64,000 nt of DNA from Collibacillus ludicampi (GTDB lineage Bacteria; Bacillota; Bacilli; Tumebacillales; BOQE01): positions 2,574,710 to 2,638,709 of the forward strand of contig NZ_BOQE01000001.1 in NCBI RefSeq assembly GCF_023705585.1, written 5' to 3'. Positions within the stretch are counted from its first letter, which is position 1; each line of letters starts with the position of its first letter. Shown one piece after another: positions 4,164 through 34,552 of this stretch. The translations under genes and the position numbers were made by a program. The notes beneath the pieces are model-generated. The model had not been told where the DNA came from, searched no databases, and saw only the letters and a program-made list of their open reading frames with translations.

Positions 4164-6032
4164 TTGACGTTTGGAACAGTTTCACAACACATATGGAAAC
4201 GGTTCGTGCATGAAGGAGTATTGGATGCTTCACGATTACAAAAACGTATCACGGAATCATGGTTTCGTTGTAAAAACGAGGGTGTCAATCCACACTCGGG
4301 CGTGGGAAAGAAAGTTCTGACCGGTGATACGTTTGATCGAAGAAAAAAACAAAACGCTTTACTTCTAGACATTGCGATTCCCTATGTAGAAAAATTGTTC
4401 GAGTATATCAAAGGTTCCCATTCCGTTGTATTATTGATTGACCCTCAAGGATATGTACTAACCATGAAGGGAGATCAAGAAGTTCTGCGTTTAGCACAAA
4501 CGATCAACTTTGTCGAGGGGGTTCAATGGACAGAAGAGGAAGTGGGAACCAATGCGATCGGGACGGCGTTGATTATAAAAGAACCTATAACGGTAGTCGG
4601 TTCTGAACATTATTCCCTTGCTTCTCATCAATGGACATGTTCTGCCGCCCCCATTTGTGATGAGGAAGGGGTCGTCATGGGAGTGATCAACGTATCCAGT
4701 CCCGTTCAACACCACCACCCTCTTACACTCGCTGCAGTCGTATCGATTGCGTATGCAATCGAACGTGAATGGAAAATTCGTGAACAAAATGACCGTCTGG
4801 AACTGATTCAGCAGTCCTTCGATTTGCTGCAGACAAATATTCCTATGGTGATTTGTAACCGCAAGAAACAGATCGTCTCTGCCAGCCAGGACGTTCGAAC
4901 CGAGGTTCCGCAGTGGGAGATGATGAAAGTTTCGGAACTGCAGGAATTTCGGTACATGGAACGAAGTTGTACCCCTTTGTACTCCCATCGTCACGGCAGA
5001 CACATCGGCTATTGCATTCACCTGAAATATTCAAAGCATAAAGTTCTTACGCATACGAAGAAAATAAAAGAGTCTTCTGTTTCTTTCATTTTTCCGGGAG
5101 AAACGGGAACGAGTGAAGCGTTTCTACGAACATTGCGGGAAGTGGAACGAGTTGCTCATACGGATGCGAATGTTCATATTTATGGGGAGAGCGGAACGGG
5201 GAAAGAGTTGATTGCCCGCGCGATCCATCAAAACAGTGCATATAAAGACGGGCCCTTTGTTGCTGTCAACTGCGGGGCGATTCCCTGTGACCTGATGGAA
5301 AGTGAATTGTTCGGTTACGTAGAAGGTGCGTTTACTGGGGCGCGCCGTCAAGGTCACCAAGGGAAATTTGAACAGGCCAATAACGGAACGATTTTTCTTG
5401 ACGAAATCGGTGAGATTTCCCCTTCCATGCAGGTTGCATTGTTACGCGTCTTGCAAGAGCGGGAGGTTACACCTATTGGCGGCAAAAAAGCGATCCCACT
5501 GAATATCCGCGTGATTACGGCTACTCATCGCGACCTACGTCAAATGGTGCAGGATGGAACGTTTCGTGAGGATCTTTTTTACCGTCTTTATGTTTTTCCG
5601 ATTTACGTTCCTTCTTTGCGAGAACGGAAAGAGGACATTCCTTACCTAATCCGTTATTATTGCAAAAAGAATCACTGGCCTGTGGAAATACCGGATGTCA
5701 TTATGGAGAAAATCATTGACTATGATTGGCCCGGAAATATTCGCGAGCTTTTTAATGTATTGGAACGGCTTCGCATCCTCTCGGGAGGAAATGCACCGGA
5801 TCCTTCTCTTGTCCATCATTTGTTCGTTCATCGTGTGGGTAGGACATCGGTTGCATCATGGGATCTAAGTTTTGCCGAACATCATAAACCTCTTACCTAT
5901 CGCGAAGAATTACAGAAGCGGGAAATCATTCAGGCCCTCGAGAAAACGGGCGGAAACGCTTCCTTGGCAGCCAAATTGCTAAACATTCCGCGCAGCACAT
6001 TTTACCGCAGACTGCAAAAATACCAGTTATAA
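4164..6032 (+). CDS. acoR: Sigma-54-dependent activator, AcoR type
   Basis: Enhancer-binding protein of about 622 residues. N-terminal sensor region with a GAF-like domain, then an AAA+ domain with Walker A GESGTGKE near residue 341 and the sigma-54 contact loop GAFTGA near 388, then a Fis-type helix-turn-helix at the C-terminus (NASLAAKLLNIPRSTFYRRL). Start is taken as TTG 4164 because AAAGGAG (4148-4154) lies 9 bases upstream and the family begins with the W-RF/SW-RC sensor region; the frame is open from 4023 but lacks a ribosome site there. It stands directly upstream of the acetoin-dehydrogenase operon, whose promoter is a perfect sigma-54 site, so it very likely switches that operon on, in known systems in response to acetoin. 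Confidence 0.93.
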   Translation: MTFGTVSQHIWKRFVHEGVLDASRLQKRITESWFRCKNEGVNPHSGVGKKVLTGDTFDRRKKQNALLLDIAIPYVEKLFEYIKGSHSVVLLIDPQGYVLTMKGDQEVLRLAQTINFVEGVQWTEEEVGTNAIGTALIIKEPITVVGSEHYSLASHQWTCSAAPICDEEGVVMGVINVSSPVQHHHPLTLAAVVSIAYAIEREWKIREQNDRLELIQQSFDLLQTNIPMVICNRKKQIVSASQDVRTEVPQWEMMKVSELQEFRYMERSCTPLYSHRHGRHIGYCIHLKYSKHKVLTHTKKIKESSVSFIFPGETGTSEAFLRTLREVERVAHTDANVHIYGESGTGKELIARAIHQNSAYKDGPFVAVNCGAIPCDLMESELFGYVEGAFTGARRQGHQGKFEQANNGTIFLDEIGEISPSMQVALLRVLQEREVTPIGGKKAIPLNIRVITATHRDLRQMVQDGTFREDLFYRLYVFPIYVPSLRERKEDIPYLIRYYCKKNHWPVEIPDVIMEKIIDYDWPGNIRELFNVLERLRILSGGNAPDPSLVHHLFVHRVGRTSVASWDLSFAEHHKPLTYREELQKREIIQALEKTGGNASLAAKLLNIPRSTFYRRLQKYQL

Positions 6033-6068
6033 ACCATGTCATCCCATGTGGCATGGTTTTTTTTATCG
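6032..6068 (+). terminator. Terminator after acoR
   Basis: ACCATG-t-C pairs with G-g-CATGGT around atcccatgt, followed by a run of eight T. Confidence 0.85.
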
Positions 6069-6079
6069 TTTAAACAAAG

Positions 6080-6115
6080 TGAGACAAAATGAGACACATG
6101 TCCCATCCTGTCTTA
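6080..6115 (+). promoter_or_regulatory. Nested dyad, probable AcoR upstream activating site
   Basis: Four heptamers: TGAGACA at 6080 and 6090, TGTCCCA at 6099 and TGTCTTA at 6109. They form two concentric dyads with the same centre (6097.5), half-sites about one helical turn apart. The centre is ~81 bp upstream of the -24 box, the usual place for an enhancer-binding protein. Confidence 0.75.
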
Positions 6116-6177
6116 ACGTGAAACCGATCATAACATACAATCCCGCAAAAAAACTGAAGAAGGTAGAGAATTCGAAT

Positions 6178-6193
6178 TGGCACTAGATTTGCA
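6178..6193 (+). promoter_or_regulatory. Sigma-54 (-24/-12) promoter of the aco operon
   Basis: TGGCAC-N5-TTGCA with GG (6179-6180) and GC (6191-6192) exactly 10 bases apart matches the sigma-54 consensus without mismatch. Transcription should begin near 6204, leaving a ~125-base leader before acoA. Confidence 0.93.
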
Positions 6194-6327
6194 ATGATGG
6201 ATACGTGCAAGGAGGTGAAGCCCCGGAAATGTAGTCAGTTCAACAACGATGGTTTCAGTGATCGAACGAAATCTATGAGTCACTTACCATGTCTGTCATT
6301 ATCAACCAACGATAGGGGGAGACGATC

Positions 6328-7323
6328 ATGAATATGACCGAGGCGCAAAAACAGGAATTATCGCGTGATCAAGCGATTTGGATGTATCGAAAAATGGTGG
6401 AAATCCGCAAGTTTGAAGACCGTGTTCATGAACTGTTTGCCCGCGGGATCTTGCCGGGTTTTGTTCATTTGTACGCGGGAGAAGAGGCGGTCGCTGTCGG
6501 CGTATGCGCTCATTTGAATGAAAAAGACAGTATTACAAGCACTCACCGCGGACATGGTCATTGTATTGCTAAAGAATGCGATCTGAACGGCATGATGGCG
6601 GAAATTTACGGGAAAGTCACGGGGCTGTGCAAAGGAAAAGGCGGCTCGATGCATATTGCCGACCTGGAAAAAGGAATGCTTGGTGCCAATGGAATCGTCG
6701 GCGGAGGTTTTCCCCTTGCATGCGGTTCTGCTTTGACTGCGAAGGTAAAAGGGACGAACGCGGTATCCGTTTGTTTCTTTGGAGATGGCGCCAACAATCA
6801 GGGAACTTTCCATGAAGGAATTAACTTGGCGGCCATCTGGAAATTACCGGTCATTTTTGTTGCAGAAAACAACGGATACGCGGAGGCCACCCCATTTACC
6901 TATGCGTCCAGTTGTACAGATATCGCCCAAAGGGCGACCGGTTATAACATTCCCAGCGTCATCGTGGATGGAAAAGATGTGATGGCAGTATACAAAGCGG
7001 CGCAAGAAGCGGTCATCAGAGCGCGAAACGGAGAAGGCCCCACATTGATCGAGTGTAAAACCTACCGCAATTACGGTCACTTCGAGGGAGACGCGCAAAA
7101 GTACAAGAAGGAAGAGGAGAAACAAATTCATTTGGATGAGAGAGATTCCATACAAATCTTCCGCAAATATCTATTATCTACCAAACTTTTTACAGAACAG
7201 GAACTCGAAAGTATAGATAACGATGTGGAGAAAGCGATTTCAGAAGCTGTGCAATTCGCGGAAGAAAGTCCGTTTCCATCTGCAGACGAACTCTTAACCG
7301 ATGTCTATGTTTCTTACAAATGA
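6328..7323 (+). CDS. acoA: Acetoin dehydrogenase E1 alpha (TPP-dependent)
   Basis: Alpha subunit (331 residues) of the thiamine-diphosphate E1 of a 2-oxo-acid-dehydrogenase-type complex. The TPP/Mg motif starts with FFGDGANNQG near residue 150 and ends with ENNGY near 183. In the acetoin system E1 cleaves acetoin and passes an acetyl group to the E2 lipoyl arm, giving acetyl-CoA and acetaldehyde. Assignment to acetoin rather than pyruvate rests on the AcoR/sigma-54 context and short subunit length. GGGGGAGA precedes the ATG. First gene of acoABCL. Confidence 0.9.
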   Translation: MNMTEAQKQELSRDQAIWMYRKMVEIRKFEDRVHELFARGILPGFVHLYAGEEAVAVGVCAHLNEKDSITSTHRGHGHCIAKECDLNGMMAEIYGKVTGLCKGKGGSMHIADLEKGMLGANGIVGGGFPLACGSALTAKVKGTNAVSVCFFGDGANNQGTFHEGINLAAIWKLPVIFVAENNGYAEATPFTYASSCTDIAQRATGYNIPSVIVDGKDVMAVYKAAQEAVIRARNGEGPTLIECKTYRNYGHFEGDAQKYKKEEEKQIHLDERDSIQIFRKYLLSTKLFTEQELESIDNDVEKAISEAVQFAEESPFPSADELLTDVYVSYK

Positions 7324-7340
7324 TGTTGGAGGTGTAGAAC

Positions 7341-8378
7341 ATGAGCAGAAAAATAAGTTTTTCCGATGCTATCAATGAAGCGATGAGACTGGCGATGCGA
7401 GCAGATGAAAACGTGATACTGCTGGGGGAGGACGTGGCCGGAGGCGCGCAAGTGGATCATCTGCAGGATGATGAAGCGTGGGGAGGTGTATTGGGCGTTA
7501 CCAAAGGGCTGGTACAGGAATTCGGGCGTGAACGCGTTCTCGATACACCGATCAGTGAAGCCGGCTTTATTGGTGCGGCCGTGGGGGCGGCAGTTACCGG
7601 TTTACGTCCGATCGCCGAGCTGATGTTCAACGATTTCGTCGGTTCCTGTCTCGACCAGATCATGAATCAATGTGCCAAATTACGTTACATGTTCGGTGGC
7701 AAAGCGCAAGTTCCAGTAACGATCCGCACCATGCACGGGGCAGGATTTCGTGCAGCCGCGCAGCATTCGCAAAGTCTGTATGCGATGTTCACACACATCC
7801 CGGGAATTAAAGTGGTGGTTCCTTCCACACCTGCGGATGCGAAGGGACTGCTCCTTGCATCCATTGCTGATAACGATCCGGTCGTTTTCTTTGAGGATAA
7901 AACCCTTTACAACATGAAAGGTGAGGTACCTGAAGGGCATTATATCATACCGCTGGGAAAAGCAGATATCAAACGGGAAGGGTCGGATCTTACCATTGTT
8001 GCTATTGGCAAACAGGTGCACACGGCTCTTCAAGCTGCAGAAATGCTCGCGAAAAAGGGAATTGAAATCGAGGTGGTCGATCCTCGGAGCCTCTCTCCGC
8101 TGGATGAAGAGACTATTCTCGCTTCTGTGGAAAAAACGAATCGACTGATCGTCATCGATGAAGCCAACCCGCGTTGCAGCGTAGCTACAGATATTGCAGC
8201 CCTTGTTGCGGATAAAGGGTTCGATCTGCTGGATGGACCAATTAAAAGAATTACCGCGCCGCACACACCTGTACCGTTTTCTCCCGTTCTGGAAGACCTC
8301 TATTTGCCAACACCGGAGAAAGTCATACAAACGGTTTCCGAATTGATCGGTGATGAAACCATAGTCGCAATTTCTTGA
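7341..8378 (+). CDS. acoB: Acetoin dehydrogenase E1 beta
   Basis: Beta subunit of the E1 enzyme, 345 residues, with the transketolase pyrimidine-binding domain (LGEDVAGGAQVDH near the start, RVLDTPISEAGFIGAAVG near residue 65-80) and the C-terminal transketolase domain. It forms the alpha2beta2 E1 with the upstream product; 17 bases separate the genes and GGAGGTG precedes the start. The 693-base gap to acoC is filled by nested inverted repeats, unusual inside an operon whose subunits must be made in proportion. Confidence 0.92.
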   Translation: MSRKISFSDAINEAMRLAMRADENVILLGEDVAGGAQVDHLQDDEAWGGVLGVTKGLVQEFGRERVLDTPISEAGFIGAAVGAAVTGLRPIAELMFNDFVGSCLDQIMNQCAKLRYMFGGKAQVPVTIRTMHGAGFRAAAQHSQSLYAMFTHIPGIKVVVPSTPADAKGLLLASIADNDPVVFFEDKTLYNMKGEVPEGHYIIPLGKADIKREGSDLTIVAIGKQVHTALQAAEMLAKKGIEIEVVDPRSLSPLDEETILASVEKTNRLIVIDEANPRCSVATDIAALVADKGFDLLDGPIKRITAPHTPVPFSPVLEDLYLPTPEKVIQTVSELIGDETIVAIS

Positions 8379-8472
8379 GTCCCCCATACCGCAAGTGGCA
8401 CCATCATTGGATGAAAAGTGTCTTGTGCGGGAAGAGAGATTTAAAGCTGTCAAAAGTAACAGAGTGGCTTTT

Positions 8473-8804
8473 GGGTGGATGGTATCGCTTTGCAGCGAAG
8501 AGGTGAGTGGAAGGTCGTTCCGCTTCCTTTTTAACCGTTAAGAGGTCAAATGCTTTGCGCGTAATAGCGACTTTGAAGGTCGTCTCGCTTCCTTTGGCAC
8601 GTTAAATGGGTATATGCTTGGCGTGAAACAGCGACTTTGGAGGTCGTCTCGCAACATTGGATCATATTCCAAGCGAGACGACCTCCACGGAGCATGAACG
8701 CCAAGCATATGCCCACAATGACGACCTTCACGGAGCATGATCGCAAAGCATATGCCTCAAAGACGACCTTCATCGAATCCAAGCGCAAAGCGATACATCC
8801 ACCC
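8473..8804. repeat. Nested inverted-repeat element A (three palindromes inside one another)
   Basis: A 332-bp structure. The outer arms begin GGGTGGATGGTATCGCTTTG (8473) and end with its near complement at 8804. A second palindrome (about 8549-8756) lies inside it and a third (8608-8713) inside that. The innermost arms are GGGTATATGCTTGGCGT...GGAGGTCGTCTCGC, a 20-base loop, then the complement. Each level has the same plan: outer stem with GCTTTGCG, a conserved unequal internal loop (about 14 against 11 bases), then an inner stem ending GTCGTCTCGC. A left flank from 8397 (GGCACCATCATTGGATGAAA) is shared with elements B and D. No protein-coding sense is apparent. Confidence 0.88.
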
Positions 8805-8868
8805 AAGCATTCATTTTCTAAGTAGCCGTCTATGCCGAAAGCGGCGCCATCAGTGGATGAAAAGTGTC

Positions 8869-8989
8869 TTTGGGTGGGCGTAATGCTTTGCGTGAGACAG
8901 CGACTTTGGAGATCGTCTCGCAACATTGATCATATTCCGTGCGAGACGATCTCCACGGAGCACGAACGCAAAGCATTACGCCCACCAAA
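8869..8989. repeat. Nested inverted-repeat element B (single level)
   Basis: One 121-bp palindrome: TTTGGGTGGGCG then TAATGCTTTGCGT, internal loop, GGAGATCGTCTCGC, 19-base loop, GCGAGACGATCTCC, internal loop, ACGCAAAGCATTACGCCC and ACCAAA. The flank GGCGCCATCAGTGGATGAAA (8843-8862) recurs at elements A and D; the right flank ACTACACATT recurs at element C. Confidence 0.88.
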
Positions 8990-9071
8990 CTACACATTTT
9001 TCAAGATAGATGCAGAGGCGAAGAGGTGAGGCAGTGTATTCACCTCTTTATCAAAAAAGGAGGGACAGAAA

Positions 9072-10352
9072 ATGGCCAATGAAGTGATCATGCCGAAACT
9101 CGGAATGGGAATGAAAGAAGGAACCGTTGTCAAATGGTTAAAAGATGTGGGGGACCCGGTACAAAAGGGAGATGCTGTGGTCGTCATCAGTTCAGAAAAA
9201 ATCGAGATGGAAGTGGAAGCGCCAGATGACGGAATATTATTGGAAATCGTGGTTCCGGAAGGTGAAGTCGTTCCCGTTGGAACGGCGATCGGTTACATAG
9301 GCACGCCGGGAGAAAAAGTGGGAATGGAAGAGAAAAGTCAATCTTCTTTTGCTGCTAAAGAACAAGTGGCGGCAGTAGCCGAATCGACCCAATCGGTTGC
9401 GACCCTGACGCCACCGGTGAAGACAAGTAAAGTAAAAATCACACCCATCGCCCGTAAAATGGCAGAGGCAGCCGGTCTGGATATTGAAACATTGGTCGGT
9501 ACAGGCCCGCAGGGGCGCATCACAAAGGAAGATGTAGAAAAAGCAATCGAAGACCGGACGCTCCTTTCCCAGACTCAGGCGTCGATTCAAGTACAACACT
9601 TGTCACTCGAGAATAAAAGTGCTTTGGCGGATCTTGCACAGGAAATGGAGGAGGATCAAACTCACGCAGAGCGCAATGTTGTCAGCGGTATGAGAAAAGT
9701 GATTGCCGCACGCATGCATGAAAGTTTGCAACAGAGTGCTCAACTTTCCATGACCATGACCGCAGATGTAAGTGATTTGCTCATGATACAAAGACGAGCG
9801 GCAGAAGAAGTGTACAACCGTTACGAACTGAAACTGACCATCACCGATTTTATTGCCCGTGCAGTTGTATTCGCCCTGCAGCAGCATAAACAAATGAACA
9901 GCGCTTGGATCGATGACAGCATCTATACGTATCCGTATGTGCATCTGGGAATCGCAGTCGCCCTTGAGAAAGGGTTGGTGGTTCCTGTGATCCGCCATGC
10001 CGAACGACTTACTCTCATCGAACTGGCGAAAGAGATCAAATCCCTTGGACGGCGTGCACGCAGTGGTCAATTGAATCCTGAGGAAATGAAAGGATCGACG
10101 TTTACCATCACCAATCTGGGCGCCTATGGAGTAGAAGTTTTCACTCCCGTGCTCAATCCGCCGGAAGCAGGAATTCTCGGTGTCGGCGCCATTCAAGATG
10201 CACCTGTGTATATCGGAGAATCTTTACAACGCCGCCATCTGTTGCCATTAAGTTTAACGTTTGATCATCGTGTCCTCGATGGGGCTCCTGCAGCCCAGTT
10301 TCTTGCAACTGTAAAACGTTATCTCGAACAACCATACAGTCTGTTGTTTTAG
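9072..10352 (+). CDS. acoC: Acetoin dehydrogenase E2 (dihydrolipoamide acetyltransferase)
   Basis: Core acyltransferase of 426 residues. Lipoyl domain 1-75 with the lipoylated lysine K43 in SSEKIEME; peripheral-subunit-binding domain near 118-160 (TPIARKMAEAAGLD, GTGPQGRITKEDV); catalytic domain from ~200 with the HxxxDG motif HRVLDG near 399 and FTITNLGAYG. It moves the acetyl group from lipoamide to CoA and forms the structural core. AAGGAGGGAC precedes the start. 15 bases separate it from the E3 gene. Confidence 0.93.
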   Translation: MANEVIMPKLGMGMKEGTVVKWLKDVGDPVQKGDAVVVISSEKIEMEVEAPDDGILLEIVVPEGEVVPVGTAIGYIGTPGEKVGMEEKSQSSFAAKEQVAAVAESTQSVATLTPPVKTSKVKITPIARKMAEAAGLDIETLVGTGPQGRITKEDVEKAIEDRTLLSQTQASIQVQHLSLENKSALADLAQEMEEDQTHAERNVVSGMRKVIAARMHESLQQSAQLSMTMTADVSDLLMIQRRAAEEVYNRYELKLTITDFIARAVVFALQQHKQMNSAWIDDSIYTYPYVHLGIAVALEKGLVVPVIRHAERLTLIELAKEIKSLGRRARSGQLNPEEMKGSTFTITNLGAYGVEVFTPVLNPPEAGILGVGAIQDAPVYIGESLQRRHLLPLSLTFDHRVLDGAPAAQFLATVKRYLEQPYSLLF

Positions 10353-10367
10353 CAAGGAGGGTGAACG

Positions 10368-11747
10368 ATGAGTACCGTAGCCATAATCGGCGGGGGGCCA
10401 TCCGGTTATGTGGCCGCCATTACGGCTGCCCGATTGGGGAAACAAGTGATCCTTATTGAAGAGGCGGAACTGGGCGGAACGTGTTTAAACGAAGGTTGTA
10501 TGCCGACAAAGTCGTTATTGGAAAGTGTAAACGTGTACGACAAGGTGAAACAAGCGGATCGTTTCGGTATTGATCTGCCCGCGGATCAAGTACAACTCAA
10601 CTGGAAGCGGGTACAACAGTATAAAAACAAAGTAGTAAAAAAACTGGTCATGGGTATCGGGTATTTGATGAAGAAAAATCAAATTCGAGTCGTAAGAGGA
10701 AGAGCTTCTTTATTAAACGATCAGCTTCTGCAAGTGGATACAGAAAAAGGAAAAGAGGAAATTTCTGCAGAGCAAATCATTATAGCGACTGGCTCTGAAC
10801 CGATCGCGTTGCCGTTCGCTCCGTTTGATGGCCAATGGATCATCCATAGCAAACATGCTCTCGAGCTATCAGAAATTCCTTCATCCCTTCTCATTATTGG
10901 CGGAGGTGTGATCGGTTGTGAATTTGCTAGTATATTCAGTCGTTTGGGCAGTAAGGTAACAATCATAGAAGCGGCGAGTCAAATACTTCCGCAGGAGGAT
11001 GAGGATACGGCGGCCATTTTGCAGCAACAATTGCAAAAAGACGGTGTCGTCATACATACCTCGGCGACAGTAAAACAAGTGGATCGTCAAACGAAACGAG
11101 TAACCTTGCAGAAAGAAGAGCAGTTGGAGGAGATCACGGCCGATCTCGTTCTGGTGTCGATTGGGAGGAAGCCGCGTGTTACAGAGCTGGGACTTGAACA
11201 GATCGGTGTTCATTATACGTCTCGGGGAATCGAAGTCAACGAACACATGCAGACAAATGTTTCACACATATACGCTTGTGGCGATGTGATCGGCGGTATT
11301 CAACTGGCACATATTGCTTTTCATGAAGGTATGGTGGCAGCTTCGAACGCTTGCGGGAAGACGAAAACGATCAACTATCGCGCGGTTCCGCGCTGTATTT
11401 ACACATGGCCGGAGATCGCTGCAGTCGGGTTGACAGAAAAAGAAGCGAGAGCAGCATACGGGGATATCCGTATCGGTGAGTTTCCTTTTTCGGCTAACGG
11501 AAAAGCATTGATTCATCATGAGCAAATCGGCAAAGTGAAAGTGATCGTTCATCCCGAATTTCAAGAGATTATCGGGCTTTCTATTATAGGGCCGCATGCC
11601 ACTGAATTGATCGGAGAAGGAACGATGATGCTTCATGCGGAGATGACCGTCGATGCAATGGAAGATTTCATCGCCGCACATCCCACTCTCTCCGAAGCCG
11701 TTCACGAAGCTGTACTCAGTGCCGTCGGTCAGGCTGTTCATATGTAA
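10368..11747 (+). CDS. acoL: Dihydrolipoyl dehydrogenase E3 of the aco complex
   Basis: FAD-dependent disulfide oxidoreductase (459 residues) that reoxidises dihydrolipoamide with NAD+. FAD motif GGGPSGYVAA at residues 8-17, redox pair C39/C44 (GTCLNEGC), second dinucleotide motif IIGGGVIGCE near 176, and the C-terminal HPTLSEAVHE with the catalytic His/Glu. Last gene of the aco operon. A second E3 is present in the pdh operon, so each complex has its own. Confidence 0.93.
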   Translation: MSTVAIIGGGPSGYVAAITAARLGKQVILIEEAELGGTCLNEGCMPTKSLLESVNVYDKVKQADRFGIDLPADQVQLNWKRVQQYKNKVVKKLVMGIGYLMKKNQIRVVRGRASLLNDQLLQVDTEKGKEEISAEQIIIATGSEPIALPFAPFDGQWIIHSKHALELSEIPSSLLIIGGGVIGCEFASIFSRLGSKVTIIEAASQILPQEDEDTAAILQQQLQKDGVVIHTSATVKQVDRQTKRVTLQKEEQLEEITADLVLVSIGRKPRVTELGLEQIGVHYTSRGIEVNEHMQTNVSHIYACGDVIGGIQLAHIAFHEGMVAASNACGKTKTINYRAVPRCIYTWPEIAAVGLTEKEARAAYGDIRIGEFPFSANGKALIHHEQIGKVKVIVHPEFQEIIGLSIIGPHATELIGEGTMMLHAEMTVDAMEDFIAAHPTLSEAVHEAVLSAVGQAVHM

Positions 11748-16124: not shown

Positions 16125-16173
16125 TTGGGTCTACCAAGCAGAAAGCAGTGCAATAGGAAGAGTGTATAGTGTC

Positions 16174-16400
16174 TTTGGGTGGGCGTAATGCTTTGCGTGA
16201 GACAGCGACTTTGGAGATCGTCTCGCTACCTAATGGACGTTATGGGGGATATGCTTTGCGCGTAATAGCGACTTTGAAGGTCGTCTCGCAACATCTGATC
16301 TTATTCTGTGCGAGACGACCTTCACGGAGCATGAGCGCAAAGCATATACCCACTGAGACGATCTCCACGGAGCACGAACGCAAAGCATACGCCCACCAAA
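16174..16400. repeat. Nested inverted-repeat element C (two levels)
   Basis: Outer arms equal element B (TTTGGGTGGGCG...TAATGCTTTGCGT...GGAGATCGTCTCG at 16174-16225; complement at about 16356-16400). An inner palindrome (about 16244-16351, GGATATGCTTTGCGC...GAAGGTCGTCTCGC) fills the loop and equals the second level of element A. It occupies nearly the whole pdhB-pdhC gap and ends 31 bases before the pdhC start. Confidence 0.88.
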
Positions 16401-16430
16401 CTACACATTATCGGGATAGGAGGTGTTGGA

Positions 16431-17741
16431 GTGGCCGCCTTTGAGTTTAAACTTCCGGATATCGGTGAAGGAATTCATGAAGGAGAAATTGTAAAATGGC
16501 TTGTCAAGCCAGGTGATGTAGTCGAAGAAGATCAACCGATCGTCGAGGTTCAAAATGATAAAGCGGTTGTCGATCTTCCCAGCCCAGTGAAAGGGAAAGT
16601 GCTGGAGATTAAAGTGGCCGAAGGGCAGGTAGCCACCGTAGGGCAGGTGCTGCTCACGTTCGAAGCGGAAGGGGTAGCACCGGAACAGGCGGAACCGGCA
16701 ATCGAGAAGGGGGAACCACCAGCTGCTCCCAATCAAGAGACAGGGACTGTCGCTCAAGTGCAACCACCTGCCCCAACCAGCCAACCGGCGACTGAAGATA
16801 TGACGGGAAAGGAAATTCTTGCGACACCGAGCGTGCGCAAATACGCTCGTGAAAAAGGAGTCGACCTCGCACGGATTGCGGGAACAGGTCCGAACGGGCG
16901 GATCACGCGTGAAGATGTAGACAAAGCGGCAGCTGACATACGGGAGGCTAGGAACGTTTCCGACTCGAAAGAAGCAGAATCAGCACAGGTCGCCACTGCG
17001 GAGGTGGAGAAACCCGCCGCAGATGCAACTTCTATGGAGACAGCGGAAGAACGTGTGCCGTTAAGAGGAATCCGCAGGTCGATCGCCCATGCGATGGTGA
17101 AGTCGAAATATACAGCACCTCACGTGACGATCATGGATGAAGTTGATGTGACAAAGTTGGTGGAGGTACGAAAAAGGGCCAAACCGCTTGCGGAGGAGAG
17201 AGGTATCAAATTGACGTATCTCCCTTTTATCGTCAAAGCGGTCATTGCAGGGTTGCGAGAGTTTCCTGTCCTCAATGCGTCTCTCGACGATGAGAAAGGA
17301 GAAATCATCTTTAAGAAAAATTACCATATTGGGATCGCTACCGATACGGAAAACGGGTTGATCGTCCCGGTCGTGAAAGATGCGGATCGCAAAAATATGT
17401 GGACGATCGCCAAGGAGATTCAAGATTTGGCTTCCCGGGGAAGAGAAGGGAGCTTGGCGGTTCATGAATTGAAAGGGAGTACGTTTACCATCACGAACAT
17501 CGGTTCTGCCGGAGGATACCTGTTCACCCCGATCATCAATTACCCGGAGGTAGCGATACTAGGAACGGGTCGGATTTCCAAGAAACCGATCATTACAGAT
17601 GATGAGATCTCAGTCGCGGACGTACTCGCTCTGTCCCTCAGTTTTGATCATCGCTTGATCGACGGAGCAACCGCTCAACAGTTCCTCAATATGATCAAAC
17701 AATTGCTGTCCGACCCGGACATGCTCGTTCTGGGGGTGTAG
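16431..17741 (+). CDS. pdhC: Pyruvate dehydrogenase E2 (dihydrolipoamide acetyltransferase)
   Basis: 436 residues: lipoyl domain 1-78 with lipoyl-lysine K44 (QNDKAVVD), a Pro/Ala-rich linker, subunit-binding domain near 125-165 ([27 protein letters not shown]), then the catalytic domain with HRLIDG near 406. Acetylates CoA and forms the complex core. Start is GTG 16431 after ATAGGAGGTG. Four bases separate it from pdhD. Confidence 0.93.
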
Positions 17742-28533: not shown

Positions 28534-28644
28534 ATCTTCACCACCTTTGTTGATTGTGATAATAGTGTACGATCTAAGAGGTTAAAAGGTACCAAAAACG
28601 CCTAAGTTGCGTACATTGAAGAGAGCTATCTTGAATACTCGTGC

Positions 28645-28767
28645 TTGGGTGGGTGTATCACTTTGCGCTTGGGTTCGATGAAGGACGTTCCGCTCGGATT
28701 CTTAACAGTAGTTGCGGAACGACCTTCAACTCACCTCTGCGCTGCAAAGCGATACAACCCACCCAAA
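28645..28767. repeat. Nested inverted-repeat element D (single level, inverted relative to A)
   Basis: Arms TTGGGTGGGTGTATCACTTT...GAAGGACGTTCCGC, 20-base loop, GCGGAACGACCTTC...GCAAAGCGATACAACCCACC. Same subtype as the outer level of element A but reversed: the shared flank (GAGTGGCTTTT, then GGCGCCATCA/GGATGAAAAGT) lies on the right here, to 28833. It sits between the divergent gerPF-like genes. Confidence 0.85.
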
Positions 28768-28898
28768 AGCCACTCAGTTTCAAAAGGCAACCTTAAACTT
28801 CCGCATAAGAAACTTTTCATCCTCTGATGGCGCCGCCGCTTGCTGCAAGGGTGGCTACCTTTAGGTGAAAGCAGTGTCATAAAAAAGGTGGTGTGCAA

Positions 28899-34385: not shown

Positions 34386-34552
34386 ATATAGGCAGATTGA
34401 AATAGGGTTGAATCCTTCACTGATGGAGTCGCTTGAGGCATGTGATGCTACTTCCTGGAAATTATAAAAAAATTCCGATAAGTCCTGTTGTTCGTCTCAA
34501 ATGAAGCCTTGTACGCATAAAATAGAGTAAACAAGGGAAGGAGGGAACGATC

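What the first reader, a model, noticed from the sequence alone, without database searches (positions are those of the whole stretch)
8473..8804. Three palindromes nested inside one another (element A)
Each level repeats one plan: stem with GCTTTGCG, unequal internal loop, stem ending GTCGTCTCGC. The level-2 unit occupies the loop of level 1, and level 3 the loop of level 2. This looks like repeated insertion of one element into the loop of another, or growth by palindrome extension. I know no described repeat family of this form.
Basis: seen in the sequence. Interest (0 to 1): 0.85.

Follow-up and report, generated by a model that had tools for sequence, protein, structure and literature searches.

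The report
Nested-hairpin IS110-type miniature mobile elements
The three-level nested palindrome is one of at least 160 related copies in this bacterium of a small gene-less mobile element whose ends match those of IS110-type (RNA-guided) insertion sequences, and its inner hairpins have been copied from one element's loop into another's like Russian dolls.

Summary
The nested hairpins at 8473-8804 fold far better than shuffles (z -14.1). They are the interior of a larger element, 8380-8825, followed head-to-tail by a second one (8826-9009). The genome holds at least ~160 relatives, nearly all intergenic and absent from 60 relatives.

All share a grammar: a conserved left end (RRTAG|YCCYCCATGCCGCAAGCGGCRCCATCAGAGGATGAAAAG), a base stem (type P or Q), 0-4 inner layers in fixed orientation, and right end TTTTCAARRTAG. 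Both ends match those of intact IS110-family elements in a sister family, whose left ends carry bridge-RNA-like guides matching their own target and donor. Insertion lacks target duplication and follows TTTTCAARRTAG, the elements' own right end. I read them as non-autonomous IS110-group elements, orphaned here: only truncated IS110 transposases remain.

Nesting is not insertion of whole elements: no left end ever lies inside a hairpin. A 130-bp inner cassette is 97.5% identical across hosts whose outer parts are 79.6% identical. Chimeric arms, unequal arm numbers and arm-corrected perfect palindromes point to loop-to-loop gene conversion or template switching.

I found no earlier description of this architecture; the kind (MITE-like IS derivative) is known.

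The parts
8380..8825 (+). Element A: complete P-type element with two inner layers (P2), between the two 2-oxoacid dehydrogenase genes 7341-8378 and 9072-10352
   Evidence: Left end 90% identical to the P consensus; ends TCCCCCATACCGC at 8380 and TTTTCTAAGTAG at 8814-8825; grammar <{()}; flanking genes by Pfam
8380..8425 (+). Left end (LE) of element A with small stem-loop CCGCAAGTGG; the part homologous to IS110 left ends
8471..8523 (+). Outer (P) left arm
8524..8544 (+). First nesting spacer TTCCTTTTTAACCGTTAAGAG
   Evidence: nested junctions carry such a TTCC-type spacer
8545..8588 (+). Middle layer (I3) left arm
8589..8607 (+). Second nesting spacer TTCCTTTGGCACGTTAAAT
8608..8652 (+). Inner layer (I2) left arm
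8653..8672 (+). Apical loop
8673..8714 (+). Inner layer (I2) right arm
8720..8756 (+). Middle layer (I3) right arm
8762..8806 (+). Outer (P) right arm
8814..8825 (+). Right end (RE) TTTTCTAAGTAG, the same motif as the insertion target
8826..9009 (+). Element B: un-nested Q-type element (Q0), head-to-tail with A
16127..16419 (+). Element C: Q-type with one inner layer (arms 16183-16398); decayed left end, start approximate; just upstream of an acyltransferase gene at 16431
28626..28855 (-). Element D: un-nested P-type element (P0); its first base is taken as the C after GGTAG
34400..34450 (-). Element E: isolated left-end fragment, no hairpin behind it

Best explanation
The feature is the hairpin body of a non-autonomous, gene-less IS110-group element. 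Level 1: whole elements (left end to right end) spread by IS110-type site-specific recombination, with transposase and guide RNA supplied in trans by an autonomous partner now lost or broken here. They insert in one orientation after TTTTCAARRTAG, a motif that each element recreates at its own right end, so head-to-tail arrays form. Level 2: the hairpin layers of the many copies are homologous to each other. Gene conversion or template switching between them, sometimes out of register, copies an inner hairpin (with its TTCC spacer) into another element's loop. That adds a layer in the correct orientation, swaps arms between types, and occasionally gains or loses single arms. Shown: the anatomy, copy number, shared ends with IS110, target motif, lack of target duplication, separate spread of the inner cassette, and chimeric arms. 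Inferred: mobilisation in trans by an IS110 enzyme, and gene conversion as the nesting mechanism.
For: Ends: an HMM of P/Q left ends hits the exact left end of 5 of 6 intact IS110 elements in the sister family (four at E 1e-7 to 2e-6, one at 0.006). In reverse, a sister IS110 left end finds 33 places in the 4-Mb genome, 86-89% identical for the best; all those checked are P/Q left ends. The sister right ends read TTTTC(A/G)GGRTAG against TTTTCAARRTAG. The sister left ends obey bridge-RNA logic: the guide matches its own target (42/50, 3 of 120 permutations as good) and its own donor (46/50, 4 of 120). Integration: the 5' flank of 56 isolated copies reads TTTTCAARRTAG (A at -2 82%, G at -1 77%), the 3' flank has no signal, there is no target duplication, and arrays are head-to-tail only. 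Minimal IS110/IS1111 ends are mobilised in trans without target duplication in experiments (PMC11187229; PMC11208160). Nesting: 106/106 complete elements have all left arms before all right arms and no internal left end. The inner cassette is 97.5% identical against 79.6% for its hosts, 20/20 pairs. P/Q base chimeras (10), unequal arm numbers (e.g. 2 left and 5 right at 708229), mismatched arm types and chimeric junctions (808502) are present.
Against: No intact IS110 transposase was found in this genome: three or four diverged, truncated or stop-containing copies. The right-end homology is only ~12 nt and not significant by itself. Beyond the first ~45 nt the interior shows no similarity to IS110 bridge RNAs, and no guide copy of the target is found inside P0 or Q0, so the elements do not carry their own guide. 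Nearly every nested junction starts with the same TTCC-type spacer, which would also fit a discrete inserting unit with its own ends. No closely related strain was available, so neither an empty site nor a nesting event in progress was seen.
Confidence: 0.68

Rival explanations
1. The inner hairpin with its TTCC spacer is itself a second, loop-targeting mobile unit that inserts into the loops of P/Q hairpins (true insertion into the loop).
For: Nearly all nested junctions begin with a TTCC-type spacer, and I1 keeps TTCCTTTCGGAYGTAAAA on the left and GCTGAAA on the right in hosts of four kinds; orientation is constant.
Against: No inner unit was seen outside a P/Q base. The outer loop is replaced rather than split. 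P-type hosts keep a P-type spacer whichever inner type they hold. Mismatched arm types and P/Q chimeras show exchange inside the arms. I1's right border carries a base that mispairs with the host stem, as a conversion tract would.
Confidence: 0.2
2. Palindrome extension: template switching within one hairpin during replication lengthens the palindrome layer by layer.
For: Two elements are perfect palindromes made by copying one arm onto the other (621824, 2711425). Right arms are tandemly repeated at 708229 and 1005363. Template switching is known to create and maintain hairpins (PMC8794818, abstract).
Against: In nearly all layers the two arms keep distinct internal-loop sequences, so the arms are not complements of each other. 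The same cassette appears in unlinked elements.
Confidence: 0.08
3. A REP/REPIN or other IS200/IS605-type (HUH, single-strand) element, moved by a Y1 transposase or RAYT.
For: GTAG-like tag, terminal hairpins, target on the 5' side only, no target duplication, fixed orientation.
Against: No Y1_Tnp gene in the genome; the ends match IS110 elements instead; units are far longer than REPs (20-40 bp per PMC3733652).
Confidence: 0.07
4. A host-selected structured RNA or mRNA-processing element, spread and conserved for function rather than as a parasite.
For: Stems hold with compensatory changes (7 of 47 P0 pairs; the three outer-stem variants match in both arms in 63 of 81 hairpins). Copies lie in intergenic spaces, co-oriented with flanking genes (47 of 60). 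The P internal loop is nearly invariant.
Against: Species-restricted in the collections searched, with many broken or truncated copies. Co-orientation also follows from the target motif and gene orientation. Compensatory changes can come from gene conversion.
Confidence: 0.1

Closest known systems
IS110 group of the IS110 family (DEDD recombinase with bridge RNA / seekRNA), here the intact copies in G002, G006 and G008
   Same: Left-end ~41-45 nt with a CATGCCGC..GCGGC stem-loop; right end TTTTC(A/G)GGRTAG; T-rich target ending in TAG; no target duplication; one orientation
   Different: No transposase gene; no recognisable bridge RNA or guides; interior replaced by nested hairpins; far higher copy number
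Prokaryotic MITEs in general
   Same: Small, gene-less, intergenic, high copy, ends shared with an autonomous IS
   Different: No terminal inverted repeats or direct repeats of the classical kind; nested layered interior; related to IS110, a family with which I found no MITE associated in the papers searched
REP / REPIN / BIME (GTAG-tagged) repeats
   Same: High-copy extragenic palindromes with a GTAG-like tag
   Different: REPs are 20-40 bp and tied to RAYT transposases; here 190-450 bp, no Y1 transposase, IS110-type ends
Coxiella QMITE2 with IS1111 inserted in its REP palindrome (PMC5896051)
   Same: An IS110-family element associated with palindromic repeats
   Different: There the IS inserts into a palindrome; here the palindrome lies inside an IS110-derived element

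Membership tests
IS110 family (as a non-autonomous derivative) | Ends homologous to those of an IS110 element | tested here: met
   Left end E 1e-7 to 2e-6 in four intact IS110s and 0.006 in a fifth, reciprocal E 3.6e-8; right end similar over ~12 nt at the right place, not significant alone
IS110 family (as a non-autonomous derivative) | No target-site duplication, one orientation, sequence-specific target | tested here: met
IS110 family (as a non-autonomous derivative) | DEDD transposase in the element | tested here: not met
   Elements are 190-450 bp with no gene; the genome's IS110 genes are truncated or carry stops. Hence 'derivative', not 'IS110 element'
IS110 family (as a non-autonomous derivative) | Bridge RNA with target and donor guides in the left end | tested here: not met
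   Similarity stops after ~45 nt; target 12-mer matches inside P0/Q0 no better than shuffles
IS110 family (as a non-autonomous derivative) | Mobilised in trans by an IS110 enzyme and its RNA | not testable with these tools
   Needs an experiment; trans-mobilisation of minimal ends is shown for other members (PMC11187229, PMC11208160)
MITE | Terminal inverted repeats and target-site duplication | tested here: not met
   Ends are not inverted repeats of each other; flanking RRTAG copies differ and no duplication is seen
REP/REPIN (IS200/IS605, RAYT) | Y1 transposase (PF01797) in the genome | tested here: not met
   0 hits; control genomes ring
Described RNA families (Rfam 15) | Match to a covariance model | tested here: not met
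   No match in the window, also at E <= 1 for 6000-10500

The most novel reading that the evidence does not exclude
The layered hairpins are a recombining set of recognition modules: each layer's conserved internal loop is (or descends from) a nucleic-acid- or recombinase-binding loop of an IS110-type guide RNA, and elements gain or exchange modules by loop-to-loop transfer, so that a non-autonomous element evolves by stacking such loops.
Probability: 0.12. Interest if true: 0.92.

Novelty: new variant of a known kind. Interest (0 to 1): 0.72.

Why it matters
It would be the first case known to me of high-copy, gene-less derivatives of bridge-RNA (IS110) elements, a family under active study as programmable recombinases, with 100-plus natural donor ends and target sites in one genome. 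The nested hairpins also give a natural record of how long imperfect palindromes gain, lose and exchange layers in bacteria, testable directly by sequencing sister strains.

Tried and rejected
Rfam (nothing). Y1/RAYT transposase (absent). TnpB (one, on contig 2, unrelated). Reverse transcriptase: two group II intron reading frames, unrelated to these repeats. A small conserved ORF read through the left end was rejected because length changes in the LE stem-loop (for example CCGCATGGGCGG) break the frame in some copies. GTAG/CGTC REP superfamilies (PMC3733652): different size and structure. The genome-contig scan gave only single matches in five unrelated taxa, taken as chance; viral contigs gave none. 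Spacer hairpin CCTTT-N8-AAAGG: pairing not consistent enough to claim.

Full report
What is in the sequence. Window 8473-8804 holds three concentric imperfect stems (z = -14.1 against shuffles). The hairpin is the interior of a bounded element, 8380-8825, and a second element (8826-9009) follows head-to-tail. Two more elements (16127-16419 and 28626-28855) and a left-end fragment (around 34400-34450) lie in the window.

Genome-wide. The arm GGTCGTCTCGC occurs 258 times in the 4.09-Mb genome (reversed control: 1) and the hairpin core at 102 sites. No other genome of the order or class examined has the core. A scan of ~85,000 species genomes gave five single matches in unrelated taxa, and that scan may leave out the window's own genome. 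I took 98 non-overlapping stretches (332 kb) around hits and parsed them with profile models of five modules: left end, P left and right arms, general (Q/I) left and right arms. They hold 148 elements or fragments. A P0 DNA search lists about 14 further P0 copies outside those stretches.

Grammar. All 106 complete elements read: left end, base stem, inner layers, right end, with every left arm before every right arm. P0 26, P1 16, P2 9; Q0 22, Q1 10; ten have a P half and a Q half; 15-20 of the 106 have unequal numbers of left and right arms. The left end is never inside a hairpin. Layers keep one orientation: left arms carry AGCGACTTT, right arms ACGGAGC. Exceptions are two arms replaced by the complement of their partner (621824, 2711425). 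Nested junctions begin with a TTCC-type spacer of about 20 nt in nearly all cases; un-nested loops begin mostly with AAC or a close variant.

Ends and target. Elements run from RRTAG|YCCYCCATGCCGC to TTTTCAARRTAG|. The 5' flanks of 56 isolated copies have the consensus TTTTCAARRTAG; 3' flanks carry no signal. The two flanking RRTAG copies differ, so there is no duplication. 23 clusters are head-to-tail, all in one orientation, 22 of them with near-constant junction spacing, and nearly all junctions join a P to a Q. Elements lie between genes (7 of 108 sites overlap a long reading frame, some of these doubtful) and are co-oriented with the G-rich strand (66 of 86) and with flanking genes (47 of 60); the two biases cannot be separated here.

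The IS110 link. A search of the order with the P0 consensus found one foreign hit, at the left end of an intact IS110-family element (Pfam DEDD_Tnp_IS110 and Transposase_20). Six such elements from three genomes of a sister family share the left ~41 nt. The P/Q left-end HMM hits five of them exactly at their termini, four at E 1e-7 to 2e-6 and one at 0.006. The reverse search with a sister left end finds 33 places in this genome, best E 3.6e-8, and those checked are P/Q left ends. Their right ends, TTTTC(A/G)GGRTAG, resemble ours. Their left ends behave as bridge RNAs: the putative target guide matches each element's own 5' flank (42/50; 3 of 120 permutations as good) and the donor guide its own right end (46/50; 4 of 120), as described for IS110 (PMC11208160). 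The MITE-like elements share only the first ~45 nt with them and carry no guide copy, so they would depend on an enzyme and RNA in trans, which is experimentally possible in this family (PMC11187229). This genome holds only truncated or stop-containing IS110 genes.

How nesting arises. The I1 cassette (130 bp from TTCC to GCTG) is 97.5% identical among ten copies. The left outer parts of same-type hosts are 79.6% identical, and the inner part is the more similar in 20 of 20 pairs. So the cassette moved between loops after its hosts had diverged. Mismatched arm types (about 8 of 81 hairpins), P/Q chimeras, arms fused between layers (808502), tandem right arms (708229) and the constant orientation are what homologous exchange between layers would give. 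A self-mobile inner unit is not excluded. Stems are held by matched changes, but gene conversion can do that without selection.

Limits. Organism names are hidden. No second strain was available, so no empty site was seen. ORF context came from a simple stop-to-stop caller. Element counts are lower bounds. Literature searches covered open-access papers only; they found neither IS110-derived MITEs nor nested-hairpin repeats of this form.

Noticed in passing
L124 (G000:C1:1732000-1746000), 6191-8745: Two group II intron RNA and reverse-transcriptase reading frames lie next to each other; both frames are short (230 and 229 aa) and look broken.
   Followed up: partly
L137-L144, L175-L183 (sister genomes): The sister IS110 elements insert in T-rich sites ending TTAGAC or TATAGAC; at least two copies sit directly behind a terminator-like hairpin.
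   Followed up: partly
L010-L107, arrays: Head-to-tail pairs are nearly always one P and one Q element; same-type tandems are almost absent, perhaps because identical repeats are lost by recombination.
   Followed up: partly
G000:C1:1724414 and 191362: Short extra copies of the right end (CACTNNTTTTCAANRTAAC) follow some elements, like remnants of lost tandem copies.
   Followed up: no
A1 columns 125-146: The internal-loop strand GAGGTGAGT of P elements is invariant in 24 copies while the left end varies, suggesting either a binding site or strong homogenisation.
   Followed up: no
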